Shown piece by piece: positions 50,819 to 55,785 of a DNA stretch of 64,000 nt. A program made the position numbers and the translations under genes. Origin of the DNA: Actinomycetota bacterium (GTDB taxonomy: Bacteria; Actinomycetota; Thermoleophilia; Miltoncostaeales; Miltoncostaeaceae); contig CAUJCX010000020.1 of the NCBI GenBank assembly GCA_963169235.1, positions 124,001 to 188,000 on the forward strand, in the 5' to 3' direction. Below the pieces are notes generated by a model. The model was not told where the DNA came from and did not search any database. It was given only the letters and a program-made list of their open reading frames with translations. Numbering within the stretch: the first letter of the stretch is position 1; each line of letters starts with the position of its first letter.

Positions 50819-51445
50819 ATGTCCGCGCAACAGGCGGCAACGGTGACACCGATGGCACAGTACGACGACGACGGGCGGGCCGAGCTTCTCGACCCCACCG
50901 AGGCGCGCAGCCTCATCGGCTCGGCCTCGAGCCGGGCACCCACGGGCATCCGCAACCGCGCGCTGGTCGTGGCGATGTACCGGGCGGGGCTGCGTCCCGG
51001 CGAGGCCCTCGGCCTCGATTTCAACGACGTCGACCTCACCACCCGCACCATCACGGTGCCGGCCCGCAAGGGGGGCACGTCGCGGGTGATCGGCATCGAC
51101 GCGGGCTCCAGCGATCTGCTGCAGCGCTGGGCCACGCGACGTGAAAAGCAGGGCATCACGCCCGACGCCCCGTTCTTCTGCACGCTCAGCGGTGAGACGC
51201 TGAAGGCCGCCTACGTACGCGAGCTACTGCCGCGCCTGGCCCGCAAGGCGGGCATCGCCAAGCGCGTCCACCCCTTGAGCCTGCGTTACACGTGCGCGTC
51301 CGAGATGGCCGCCGAGGGCCTGCCGACGGCGCTCATCGAGAAGCACCTGGGCGTGGCCGTCAGCGGCAGCGCGCGCCGCTACCTGCGCAGCTTCACCGAC
51401 GACGAGGTCATCGCGGCCGCCCAGGAGCGGGAGTGGCGCCTCTAA
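50819..51445 (+). CDS. Compact tyrosine recombinase/integrase
   Basis: A 208-residue catalytic domain only. ATG 50819 has AAGGGA upstream. Active-site positions are Arg59 (AGLRPGEAL), Lys84 (PARKGGTS), His151-x4-Arg156 (HPLSLRYT) and Tyr188 (ARRYLRS). The usual second histidine (LGH before the tyrosine) is Val179 (HLGVAVSGS). The normal N-terminal SAM-like core-binding domain is absent. It could be a domesticated or minimal integrase or a chromosome-dimer-type enzyme. It stands between a response regulator and an NlpC/P60 gene, with no adjacent mobile-element genes. Confidence 0.85.
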   Translation: MSAQQAATVTPMAQYDDDGRAELLDPTEARSLIGSASSRAPTGIRNRALVVAMYRAGLRPGEALGLDFNDVDLTTRTITVPARKGGTSRVIGIDAGSSDLLQRWATRREKQGITPDAPFFCTLSGETLKAAYVRELLPRLARKAGIAKRVHPLSLRYTCASEMAAEGLPTALIEKHLGVAVSGSARRYLRSFTDDEVIAAAQEREWRL

Positions 51446-52782
51446 CGGCGTAGCCCCCGGCGCTCGGCGCTGGTCATCTGCGGCGGCGTCCCGAAGGGCG
51501 CCGGGCGCCGGGCGCGGGCCTGCCCCGTCGTCCAGTAGGTGGCCAGCGACGAGATCGTCACGCCGGCGCGCGAGCCCGACGAGTGCACCATCCAGCGTCC
51601 GCCGAGGGCCATGCCCACGTGGCTGATGTCGCCGCGGGCCGTGCGCATGCCGCGGTCACCGAAGAACACCAGGTCGCCGGGGGCCACCGCCGACAGCGCG
51701 ACGCGCTCCCGCGGCGCTTCGAACGCCATCGCGTCGGCCGTGCGTCCCACCAGGTCGTCTCCCAGCCCGGCGGCCGCGCTGCGCTGGTCGCCCTTGAACG
51801 CCATCCACACCAGCCCGGAGCAGTCGAAGCCGCCTTGCGCCTGGTAGCCCCACGGGGAGGACCCGGTGGGCCAGTCGCCGCCCCAGATGTACGGCATGCC
51901 GACCTGCGTGAACGCGGCCTGCACCACCGTGCGCTGGGCGTCCGACATCACGGGCAGGCGGATGGAGCGGTAGCGGGCGGCGGCGGAACGGGCGAACAAG
52001 TCAAGCGACCGGGCCCGATCGGTCATGGCCACCAGGTCGGCGACGCGTATCGGGGCGGCGTCGGGCCGCTCGAGCGCCTCGTCGGCCGCGGGGTAGTTGT
52101 GGCGTAGGCGCAGCTCGCGCGCCAGCACGGCGGCCGGGAACCCGGGCGGCGTCGCGAACCGGGCGCCGTCGGCGGTGCCGATGCGGGCCAGGCCCGCCAG
52201 CGACGGGCGCAGGCCCAGCACCCGCAGCACGGTGGTCTGGGCGGTGCGGGCGCTGACGGGCGCGTCCGGCGCGAACGCGCCGCCGGGCGCCTGCATCCAG
52301 CGACGTGCGACGGCCACCGAGATGGCCCCCGCGGCCGGATCCTGCGCAGCGACGTCGGTGGGGAGCGGCGCGCTTCCCCCCGTGGCCCGCGGGGCCAGCG
52401 CGTGGAGCGCGCGGGCCAGGTCGCGGCGGGTGGCGTCGCGTCCCAGGTCGTCGGCCGCGTCCCACAGCCCGTCGCGCGCCAGCGCGGCCCGGGCGGGCGC
52501 GGCCCACGCGAACGGCGAGCGCGGCGGGGCCCGGTGCACCGCGGGCGCGTCCGGGGTGACGGGCGTGGTCGCGGGGCTGGTCGCGGTGGGAGCCGGGGCA
52601 GGCGCGGCGACTGGGGCGGGCGCGGGGGTGGTGGTGACGGGGGCGGTGGCCGTGAGCGCCGGCGCCGGTGCGGGGGGCGGGGTGGGACGAGGAGCGGGCA
52701 CGGCGGCAAGCGCGCCCGGCGCGACGGCCATCGCGCCCGCGACGGCGGTGAGAACGCGGCGGGGTGTGAGGCGGAGGCTCAT
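51442..52782 (-). CDS. Secreted NlpC/P60 (C40) peptidoglycan hydrolase
   Basis: A 446-residue exported protein. A signal peptide (RVLTAVAGAMAVAPGALA) is followed by a long Ala/Pro/Thr linker, a central alpha-helical domain with two repeats like SLH-type segments, then a C-terminal NlpC/P60 domain. Its residues are Cys321 (GGFDCSGLVW), His388 (DISHVGMA) and His400 (WMVHSSG). It should cleave the D-Glu to diamino-acid peptide bond of peptidoglycan stems. Start ATG 52782. It ends in a 4-bp overlap with the recombinase. It is the downstream gene of the sortase fusion, with a terminator between. Confidence 0.92.
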   Translation of the reverse strand: MSLRLTPRRVLTAVAGAMAVAPGALAAVPAPRPTPPPAPAPALTATAPVTTTPAPAPVAAPAPAPTATSPATTPVTPDAPAVHRAPPRSPFAWAAPARAALARDGLWDAADDLGRDATRRDLARALHALAPRATGGSAPLPTDVAAQDPAAGAISVAVARRWMQAPGGAFAPDAPVSARTAQTTVLRVLGLRPSLAGLARIGTADGARFATPPGFPAAVLARELRLRHNYPAADEALERPDAAPIRVADLVAMTDRARSLDLFARSAAARYRSIRLPVMSDAQRTVVQAAFTQVGMPYIWGGDWPTGSSPWGYQAQGGFDCSGLVWMAFKGDQRSAAAGLGDDLVGRTADAMAFEAPRERVALSAVAPGDLVFFGDRGMRTARGDISHVGMALGGRWMVHSSGSRAGVTISSLATYWTTGQARARRPAPFGTPPQMTSAERRGLRR

Positions 52783-52833
52783 GTTGTCGGCAGGATCGGC
52801 GGCCGGGTGCCCGTCCTTGAACGGGCGGGGTCC

Positions 52834-52869
52834 CGGGCGGTGAAACGGCAACATCCGTTCCACCGCCCG
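52834..52869 (-). terminator. Stem-loop after the sortase-fusion gene
   Basis: CGGGCGGTG (52834-52842) pairs with CACCGCCCG (52861-52869), and inside AACGG (52844-52848) pairs with CCGTT (52855-52859) around CAACAT. It is just downstream of the 52875 stop on the minus strand. Confidence 0.75.
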
Positions 52870-52874
52870 CGGCG

Positions 52875-55619
52875 TCACGACCGCACGGCCGTCACCACCA
52901 CGTTGTCCCGGTAGTGGCCGATGGCGCGATCGAACGGGCCACCGCACGTCACCAGGGTGAGGCGCTCCCGTCCCGTGACGGAGTAGACGTTGAGGGGCAG
53001 CGCCGCCTTGGGCATCGTCCGCACCGACGTGACGCGGTATGTGTGCGTGCGGCCGCCCGCCGTCACCGCCACGCGCATGCCCGCACGGGCGTCCTTCAGG
53101 CGGAAGAACGCCCCCGGGCCGCGGCGGGCGCTGTCGACGTGTCCGGCGATCAGCACGCTGCCGTTGCCGTCGCCGGGCGCCGCGCCGTCACGCCACCAGC
53201 CGGTGCGCGCGATGTTGTCGGGAGCGTTCAGCTCGCCGGCCGCGACGTCGATGCCCACGGCCGAGACCGGCGCGTTGATGCCGAGCGCCGCGACGGTGAC
53301 CCGGGTGGGCGCGTCGCCGGAGCCCTGGGCCTGGCGCACGGGCCGCGCCGGGACGGGTGCCCGTCCCGTCTGGATGGCCGGCGCGCCCAGCGACGTCTCG
53401 GCGGCCTCGCCGCACTGTCCCTGGGTGGCCGTCACGAACGCGCTGCCCGCGATGCGCTCACGGTACGTGTAGAAGCCGGCCTTCTGGATCCGCACGGGTT
53501 CGGACGCGTACGTGCCGTCGCCCTTGGCGGCGTCGACCGTGCCGTGCCAGTACGGCGTGCCGGTGCAGCGCATGGCCGCCTTGGTCGCGAACGGGCCGTA
53601 CAGCGCCAGCTCGATCTGCAGCGGCGTGGTGCCGGCACCGGTGACCTTCAGCCGGTCGAACAGCGCGTCGCCCGGGCGCAGCACCGCGCTGGAGGCCTGG
53701 GTCACCACCTCGGGGTTGGCCTTCGCGATGGTGGTCTCGGCCGCGACGCCGCACTCACCCTGGTGCGCGTCGTTCTGCGGCATCTCGCTGATGCGCTCGC
53801 GGTACGTGTAGTACCCCACCTTGGTCAGGCGCACCTCCGGCGTGGTGTACGTGCCGTCGCCCTTGGCCTCCACCGTGCCCGACCACGCGGGCGGACCCGA
53901 GCACACCATCTGGTCGGTCGACTCGTACGGCCCGTACAGCTCCACGTTGACGGTGGCGGTGAGGCTTCCGAGCCCCGTCACCACCAGCGTGTCGTGGATG
54001 GTGCCTCCGGGGGTCGTCTCCTGCGCGCTGACCTGCGTGACCACCTTGGGGCTGCCCACCACGATGGCGGTTTCGAGCGGATCGCCGCACGCGATCTCGG
54101 ACTTCTCCACCAGCTCGTTGCCCGAGATGCTCTCGCGGAACACGTAGAAGCCCGGCGTCGTCAGCGTGACGGGGGGCGTCGTGTACGTGCCGTCGCCCGT
54201 CGCCGTCAGCGTCTGCGTCTGGATGGCGGGGCCCTGGCAGTTCATCGCCTCGCGGGTGGGGTACGGCCCGAACAGCTCCACCGTGATGGGGGCGGTCTCG
54301 CCCGTGAGCCCCTTGACCGTGACGGCCGTGGTGAGGCCCTCGTTCGGCCGCACGCGTTCCTTGTTGACCTGGCTTGTCATCACGGGCTTCGCGATCACCC
54401 GGAACGTCTCGCTGGGCTCACCGCACGGCGTGGTGAAGGCCTCGTACTGCGGCGAGTCGGGCACCGACATCTGGTACGAGTACCAGCCCGGCGTGTCGAG
54501 CTTGACGGGGTCGGTGCTGAACACCGTGCGGCCGTCCGTGGACACCTGGCCCGCCGCGGCCGGCGTGCCCGTGCACACCACCTGCGCCTTGGTGCGGAAC
54601 GGCCCGAACAGTTTCACGCCGATGGTCGCCCGGATGCCGGCCGAGCCCCCGATGATGGACACGCGGTCGCGGCTGTTGCCGCCCGTCGGCACCACGGTGG
54701 GGAACGCCCGGGTCCTGATGGCGATGCTGCCGCGCCCCACCGGGCGCGCCACCGACTGCTCGACCGCTTCGCCCTGCGGTGCCGCGAGGCGCTGGCCGTT
54801 GCGGGAGGCGGCCGCCGTGCTGGGCTGGAAGAGCTTGGGGCGCGGGGCCGCCAGCGGCTCGGTGCGCGCGTTGATGCTGATCTGCCCGCGGGTGCCCGGC
54901 GTGAACGTCGCGGTCGCGACGCCCTTCGCGTTGGTGCGCACCTTGCCGGCGAGGCCCGTCACGTCGTCCGAGTCGAGCGTGACGTCCACGCCGGACATCG
55001 GGGCCCCGGTGGCCGACACCACCTTCACCGCGACCGTCGCCTCCTGGGCCACCGTGAGGCGGGACGCCATGCTCATCTGCACCCGGTACGGGCCGCGCAG
55101 GCGCTGTGCGTCCCGCGCGATGTCGTCGTACACGCTCTCCACCCGCGCCCCGACGGCGTCCTTGGCCACCTCGCCGGGCGCCCCGTCCCTCATGAGGCCG
55201 TGTACGTACAGCATGGTCGCGGCCTGGCGATCGGTGGTGTTCGAGCGCCCGTAGTTCCAGATGGCGTACGACATCTTGGCCAGGTCGCGCTCGCTGATGG
55301 TCGCGCCCTCGCGGTTGCGGAACACCGGGGGGTCGATCTCGCGGTACGCGAACTGCTTGCCCGGATACCAGTAGCGCAGGTCCAGGCAGAACGTGGCCAC
55401 CCGCCCCAGCGAGGGAATGGCGCCGCGGTAGTCGCCGAACCAGCGCAGGCCGTAGCGGTAGCGCTGGTACGAGCCGACGCCGGTGGTGCCGCACGTGTTG
55501 CGACCGGCCTTGCCGCACGGGTCGTTCTGGTTCGGAGGCTCGGCCGACATCGCGGGGACGGCGGACACGAGCGTCGCGACGGCAGCCGTGGCGACGAGAT
55601 GAGAGAGGCGGATGCGCAT
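52875..55619 (-). CDS. Surface adhesin with thioester-like domain, four Cys repeats and fused sortase
   Basis: A 914-residue secreted protein (start ATG 55619 before the signal peptide; ATGs at 55628 and 55631 are alternatives). After the signal (~25 residues) comes a domain with FCLDL (Cys78) and DRQAATMLYVHG (Gln132), like the Cys-Gln pair of thioester adhesion domains. An Ig-like segment at ~185-260 follows. Then come four ~110-residue repeats with E-L-x-GP-x2-T-x3-M-x-C-x-G, GDGTY-x-T and CG-x3-ET, each having two cysteines. Residues ~774-914 form a sortase domain with His827 (IAGHVDS), Cys892 (LVTCGGP) and Arg904 (YRDNVVV). The fusion implies a self-attaching or self-processing surface protein. 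Confidence 0.88.
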   Translation of the reverse strand: MRIRLSHLVATAAVATLVSAVPAMSAEPPNQNDPCGKAGRNTCGTTGVGSYQRYRYGLRWFGDYRGAIPSLGRVATFCLDLRYWYPGKQFAYREIDPPVFRNREGATISERDLAKMSYAIWNYGRSNTTDRQAATMLYVHGLMRDGAPGEVAKDAVGARVESVYDDIARDAQRLRGPYRVQMSMASRLTVAQEATVAVKVVSATGAPMSGVDVTLDSDDVTGLAGKVRTNAKGVATATFTPGTRGQISINARTEPLAAPRPKLFQPSTAAASRNGQRLAAPQGEAVEQSVARPVGRGSIAIRTRAFPTVVPTGGNSRDRVSIIGGSAGIRATIGVKLFGPFRTKAQVVCTGTPAAAGQVSTDGRTVFSTDPVKLDTPGWYSYQMSVPDSPQYEAFTTPCGEPSETFRVIAKPVMTSQVNKERVRPNEGLTTAVTVKGLTGETAPITVELFGPYPTREAMNCQGPAIQTQTLTATGDGTYTTPPVTLTTPGFYVFRESISGNELVEKSEIACGDPLETAIVVGSPKVVTQVSAQETTPGGTIHDTLVVTGLGSLTATVNVELYGPYESTDQMVCSGPPAWSGTVEAKGDGTYTTPEVRLTKVGYYTYRERISEMPQNDAHQGECGVAAETTIAKANPEVVTQASSAVLRPGDALFDRLKVTGAGTTPLQIELALYGPFATKAAMRCTGTPYWHGTVDAAKGDGTYASEPVRIQKAGFYTYRERIAGSAFVTATQGQCGEAAETSLGAPAIQTGRAPVPARPVRQAQGSGDAPTRVTVAALGINAPVSAVGIDVAAGELNAPDNIARTGWWRDGAAPGDGNGSVLIAGHVDSARRGPGAFFRLKDARAGMRVAVTAGGRTHTYRVTSVRTMPKAALPLNVYSVTGRERLTLVTCGGPFDRAIGHYRDNVVVTAVRS

Positions 55620-55785
55620 GCCGTGCATCATTGCCGCCCGCGTGCGCAGCAGGTAACCCCCGGGGGGCGGGATGTACCAGTCAGACTGGTACATATGTCC
55701 TCCTCCCAGGCCGTGCGCAGGGATTTCTTACGCCCAACGTCGCCGCACCCGCGGTGTTGGTGGGCTCCGCTAGCCTGGCGTCATC

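What the first reader, a model, noticed from the sequence alone, without database searches (positions are those of the whole stretch)
52875..55619. Surface protein with thioester-like domain, Cys-repeats and a fused sortase domain
One 914-residue secreted polypeptide combines an N-terminal domain with a Cys/Gln pair (Cys78, Gln132) resembling thioester adhesins, four repeats each with two conserved cysteines, and a complete sortase-like catalytic triad (His827, Cys892, Arg904). Sortases are normally separate enzymes that anchor other proteins. Fused to an adhesin-like chain, the domain could anchor the protein itself, cross-link copies, or be a dead docking module. An NlpC/P60 hydrolase is the next gene downstream on the same strand. 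This is the best candidate here for an undescribed system.
Basis: partly seen in the sequence, partly recalled or inferred. Interest (0 to 1): 0.82.

Follow-up and report, generated by a model that had tools for sequence, protein, structure and literature searches.

The report
Adhesin-like protein with built-in sortase
A family of secreted, adhesin-shaped proteins in one class of actinobacteria ends in a protein-anchoring enzyme (a sortase) at the place where relatives carry the tag such an enzyme recognises, which suggests, but does not prove, that the protein attaches itself.

Summary
The gene is on the minus strand. Its product has a Sec signal peptide, an N-terminal head, a Big_1-like domain, four Ig-like repeats with one Cys pair each, and a C-terminal class F-like sortase domain (Pfam E 3e-20; model matches solved sortases). 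I found 27 members with this fusion, all in the same bacterial class; 24 tested form one sortase clade (100/99), so the fusion probably arose once. Catalytic His and Cys are kept in 27/27 and Arg in 23/27, so the domain is probably not dead. The thioester claim is weak: Cys78 is kept in 25/25 heads, Gln132 in only 21/25 and in a predicted helix, not on the strand that carries the bonding Gln in known thioester domains; no member tested matches Pfam TED. The NlpC/P60 neighbour is kept only within the genus. Relatives with the same repeats but no sortase end in LPxTG-type sorting signals where this family has its sortase. Most likely the protein anchors itself or its copies; cleavage at a conserved PxIxTG site before the sortase is possible but unproven (three members have GG). 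New variant of a known kind.

The parts
52875..55619 (-). Gene for the 914-residue protein (ATG at 55619; alternative start ATG at 55694 gives 939 residues)
   Evidence: homologues over the full length
55542..55619 (-). Signal peptide, residues 1-26, ending AxA
   Evidence: sequence; the only strongly hydrophobic stretch of the chain; AxA|EPPNQ-like site conserved
55080..55541 (-). N-terminal head, residues 27-180, thioester-domain-like; invariant Cys35, Cys43, Cys78, His140
   Evidence: not matched by Pfam TED
54861..55046 (-). Big_1-like Ig domain, residues 192-253
   Evidence: below Pfam cut-off singly, but in 21 of 22 members; intimin D0 by sequence and fold
54387..54722 (-). Ig-like repeat 1, residues about 300-411, C349/C399
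54051..54386 (-). Ig-like repeat 2, residues about 412-523, C461/C511
53715..54050 (-). Ig-like repeat 3, residues about 524-635, C573/C623
53382..53714 (-). Ig-like repeat 4, residues about 636-746, C685/C736
53358..53381 (-). Conserved motif PAIQTGRA, residues 747-754 (family: P-[LAG]-[IV]-x-[TG]-G), candidate cleavage site
   Evidence: Gly752 in 27/27, Thr751 in 24/27
53313..53357 (-). Variable linker, residues 755-769
   Evidence: low conservation and low model confidence
52878..53312 (-). Class F-like sortase domain, residues 770-914; His827 at 53139-53141, Cys892 at 52944-52946, Arg904 at 52908-52910

Best explanation
A fibrillar-adhesin-like surface protein that carries its own attachment enzyme. 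Shown by sequence comparison: a Sec signal and no other membrane segment; a head and an Ig-like stalk; a C-terminal class F-like sortase with conserved catalytic residues at the place where related proteins carry a sorting signal. Inferred: the stalk holds the head away from the cell; Cys892 attacks a peptide bond in the same chain or another copy, most plausibly T751|G752 after the last repeat, and passes the stalk to an amine on the cell wall or on another copy, leaving the sortase domain behind. Activity, site and acceptor are all untested.
For: Sortase fold and residues; His and Cys 27/27, Arg 23/27. One conserved fusion clade, across several families of the class. Relatives with the same repeats but no sortase end in LAHTG, LPATG, LPFTG or VPQTG plus membrane segment and basic tail, so sortase and sorting signal replace each other. 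In the 10 carriers of the window's order the fused gene is the only PF04203 sortase, and PF00746 finds no LPXTG anchor above its cut-off in nine of them (that model is insensitive to actinobacterial signals). Gly752 invariant at the end of the last repeat, never seen at the matching position of repeats 2-4. Model confidence falls just after it. An independent class F fusion to a chain with sorting-signal-like parts exists (L051).
Against: No LPxTG, LAxTG or NPxT motif in the chain; Thr751 is Gly in 3 of 27 members, a residue sortases do not usually cut after (general knowledge). PxIxT is inherited from the repeat boundary. Arg904 is lost in 4 members. Most carriers outside the order have a second sortase. 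No biochemical evidence.
Confidence: 0.4

Rival explanations
1. A sortase that works in trans: head and stalk place or tether the enzyme, which anchors other secreted proteins.
For: Sole sortase in the 10 carriers of the order; all known sortases act on other proteins (general knowledge).
Against: No membrane anchor to hold the enzyme at the export site; no LPXTG anchor over cut-off in the window's genome (insensitive); the frequent PxVTG C-termini also occur in order members without a detected sortase.
Confidence: 0.27
2. The sortase links copies of the protein into fibres or sheets, as class C sortases do with pilins, rather than to the wall.
For: Repetitive stalk and one enzyme per subunit; the closest solved fold is a pilus-type class C sortase (8t28), though class A is nearly as close.
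Against: No conserved acceptor Lys was identified; class C lid features were not tested.
Confidence: 0.13
3. The sortase domain is inactive and serves as a binding or structural module.
For: Arg904 is K, V, L or E in 4 of 27 members.
Against: His and Cys invariant in 27/27. The same Arg position is H or E in two other class F-like proteins (L051, L062), so its loss is not special to the fusion.
Confidence: 0.12

Closest known systems
Class F sortases (NF033748; first studied in Propionibacterium acnes; physiological roles unknown, PMC13251363)
   Same: Sequence, fold, His-Cys-Arg; the fused clade nests among free class F sortases
   Different: Free ones are short proteins of about 200-500 aa frames, at least one with an N-terminal membrane segment (L066); this one is the C-terminus of a long secreted chain and scores below the class F cut-off
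TIE / thioester adhesins with LPXTG anchor (SfbI, BaTIE; PMC4450167, PMC6194298)
   Same: Secreted, N-terminal head with [YFL]C-type Cys motif, Ig-like stalk
   Different: No supported bonding Gln, Cys-paired repeats, and a sortase in place of the LPXTG tail
Actinobacterial repeat proteins with LPxTG/LAxTG tails (L020, L186, L187, L190 here)
   Same: Same kind of repeats, same position of the terminal signal; L020 also shares the head
   Different: They carry a sorting signal, membrane segment and basic tail and no sortase
Engineered sortase-tag expressed protein ligation (technique named in papers; design from general knowledge)
   Same: Order of parts: cargo, recognition site, sortase
   Different: Man-made, class A sortase, LPXTG site

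Membership tests
Sortase superfamily, class F | Matches the sortase profile above cut-off | tested here: met
   PF04203 72.7 bits against 26.6
Sortase superfamily, class F | Matches the class F model above its cut-off | tested here: not met
   NF033748 is the best class model, 114.7 bits against 166; so 'class F-like'
Sortase superfamily, class F | Sortase fold | tested here: met
   Model pLDDT 84.6, Foldseek E 9.5e-8 to SrtC2
Sortase superfamily, class F | Catalytic His, Cys, Arg | tested here: met
   All three in the window protein; family 27/27, 27/27, 23/27
Sortase superfamily, class F | Membrane anchoring of the enzyme | tested here: not met
   Only a cleavable-looking signal peptide, more than 700 residues from the domain; signal cleavage itself not tested
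Sortase superfamily, class F | Transpeptidase activity on a sorting signal | not testable with these tools
   Needs biochemistry
Thioester domain (PF08341) | Matches the Pfam TED profile | tested here: not met
   No match in the window protein or in 22 scanned members
Thioester domain (PF08341) | [YFL]C-hydrophobic-polar Cys motif | tested here: met
   FCLD; Cys78 25/25
Thioester domain (PF08341) | Conserved bonding Gln on the strand after the helices | tested here: not met
   Gln132 is in a helix and 21/25; position 181 on the next strand is variable
Thioester domain (PF08341) | TED fold | tested here: inconclusive
   Three helices between strands in the model, but no TED structure among the 50 best fold matches, which follow the Ig domain; the head N-terminus is modelled with low confidence
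Thioester domain (PF08341) | Intact thioester, about 17 Da mass loss | not testable with these tools
   Needs mass spectrometry
Fibrillar adhesins (PMC9210967) | Long chain, repeat stalk, adhesive head, surface anchor | tested here: inconclusive
   Long chain and stalk present; adhesion untested; usual anchor absent

The most novel reading that the evidence does not exclude
A natural cis-acting sortase: a surface protein that cuts itself off its own C-terminal sortase and joins itself to the wall or to its copies, so that enzyme and substrate are made as one chain.
Probability: 0.35. Interest if true: 0.8.

Novelty: new variant of a known kind. Interest (0 to 1): 0.58.

Why it matters
The physiological roles of class F sortases are unknown (PMC13251363). 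A family in which such a sortase was fused to an adhesin-like chain and kept names a likely substrate and makes the question directly testable. If it acts on itself it would be a new way to attach a surface protein and a natural counterpart of engineered sortase fusions.

Tried and rejected
(1) Co-loss of the PxIxTG motif and Arg904: suggestive in 24 members (both motif deviants were Arg deviants) but not in 27, where two new GG members keep Arg. (2) PxVTG C-termini as substrates of this sortase: they occur also in genomes without a detected sortase. (3) NlpC/P60 as partner: not conserved. (4) Thioester with another conserved Gln: no Gln of the head is kept in over 85% of members; the only invariant Gln of 27-290, Q276, lies beyond the Big_1 domain. 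(5) The G005 and G006 repeat proteins with LAHTG/VPQTG may lie on contaminating contigs; used only as examples of architecture. (6) The G033 sortase lies beside an LPXTG anchor on a 4.8-kb contig and was not matched by the family profile; set aside. (7) Paper searches for a sortase fused to an adhesin or thioester domain found nothing relevant in the open library; most subscription papers are not held. (9) Models gave no coordinates, so distances (Cys78-Gln132, motif to Cys892) were not measured.

Full report
What is there. The coordinates hold a minus-strand gene. From ATG 55619 it encodes 914 residues, the numbering used here; ATG 55694, with GGGAGGAGG just upstream, is a likelier start and only lengthens the stretch before the signal peptide. 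The chain is: signal peptide 1-26; head 27-180; Big_1-like Ig domain 192-253 (intimin D0 by sequence and fold); four Ig-like repeats, about 300-746; linker; sortase 770-914.

Sortase domain. Pfam Sortase matches 775-913 at E 3e-20. The best NCBIfam model is class F, below its cut-off. An AlphaFold2 model of residues 642-914 (mean pLDDT 84.6) matches solved sortases, SrtC2 of Actinomyces oris first (E 9.5e-8). His827, Cys892 and Arg904 are at the expected places.

Family. Searches of the order, class, phylum and two families of the class, and one collection scan, gave 27 members with the fusion, all in the same class; the three records with names are MAGs labelled Thermoleophilia, Patulibacter and Actinobacteria. 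25 have the head in the frame used; some have fewer repeats. In a tree of 45 sortase domains the 24 fused ones used form one clade, 100/99. In an evenly drawn phylum sample no full fused protein was found outside the class. His and Cys are invariant (27/27), Arg 23/27. In the 10 carriers of the window's order the fused gene is the only PF04203 sortase. Of 17 carriers outside the order most show a second sortase; the one I could read is of another kind, with a membrane segment.

Head domain. Walden et al. (PMC4450167) and Miller et al. (PMC6194298) describe thioester domains with a Cys in a [YFL]C-hydrophobic-polar motif and a bonding Gln on a later strand; the Gln of the helical TQxxPhiW motif is not essential for the bond. 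Here the Cys motif is present (FCLD; Cys 25/25) and three helices follow, but Gln132 is in the second helix and is T, S, N or A in four members; position 181 on the following strand is variable; no scanned member matches Pfam TED; no thioester-domain structure is among the 50 best fold matches. The head resembles that of a repeat protein ending in LAHTG (hhalign 85%, E 6e-6 against that single target). I call it thioester-domain-like, with no support for the bond. Cys35 and Cys43 are invariant and may pair (inference).

Where the sortase sits. Proteins with the same repeats but no sortase end in LAHTG (L020), LPATG (L187), LPFTG (L186) or VPQTG (L190), followed by a membrane segment and basic tail (the repeats of L190 were recognised by eye only). 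The fused family has instead P-[LAG]-[IV]-x-[TG]-G (one member lacks the Pro), a variable linker and the sortase. P-x-[IV]-x-T also opens repeats 2-4, but Gly at position 752 (27/27) never occurs at the matching position there. Model confidence falls right after it. This fits a cleavage site before a flexible linker, but three members have GG, and an interdomain motif elsewhere (NGQR, 274-277) holds equally conserved residues, so I give the exact site about 0.2.

Mechanism. The chain has no membrane segment but its signal. A secreted enzyme that anchored others would be lost unless held; a protein that anchors itself would not. Together with the replacement of the sorting signal, the retained catalytic residues and the absence of other sortases in carriers of the order, self-attachment is the best reading (0.4). 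A trans role (0.27), polymerisation (0.13) and an inactive module (0.12) remain. A second, independent fusion in G216 (L051: DUF7507/DUF11 repeats, PPETGG and VQTGG, membrane segment, RVRVRRSR, second membrane segment, class F-like sortase; outside the fused clade) shows that substrate-like and sortase parts have been joined more than once.

Novelty. No paper found describes this architecture, within an open-access library. Every part is of a known kind; the combination and the proposed cis action are what is new. New variant of a known kind.

Noticed in passing
Own genome: L091, L095, L097, L099, L100, L101, L102; relatives: L134, L136-L139, L143, L144, L148-L151: Secreted-looking, mostly DUF11-type proteins end exactly in P-x-V-T-G at the C-terminus, with no membrane segment or basic tail after it: seven in the window's genome and many in its order, including the near-complete genomes G018 and G019 that have no PF04203 sortase. 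Pfam and NCBIfam do not describe such a tail in the five scanned. It may be an unrecognised C-terminal signal.
   Followed up: partly
L051:3928-8085 (+): An independent fusion in another genome of the class: DUF7507/DUF11 repeats, PPETGG/VQTGG, membrane segment, basic stretch, second membrane segment and a class F-like sortase in one 1386-residue frame.
   Followed up: partly
window 54789-54800 (-), residues 274-277 (NGQR): Between the Big_1 domain and repeat 1 an NGQRLA stretch holds Gln276 and Arg277, invariant in the members aligned; no explanation.
   Followed up: no
window, residues 78, 140, 145, 150 of the head (-): His140, Asp145 and Glu150 are as invariant as Cys78 in the head; an activity other than a thioester is conceivable.
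   Followed up: no
L002 and L003 (own genome contigs C35 and C40): Two other proteins of the genome match Pfam TED (25.7 and 21.6 bits; cut-off 22) and end in PAVTG; they have no sortase domain.
   Followed up: partly
window 51442-52947 (-): NlpC/P60 protein directly downstream (PF00877 E 1.8e-15); the listed GTG start overlaps the sortase gene, so a later start, for instance at MSLRLTPRR, is likelier.
   Followed up: partly
L053:594-13283 (+): A 4230-residue open frame with many copies related to the stalk repeats, in another genome of the class.
   Followed up: no
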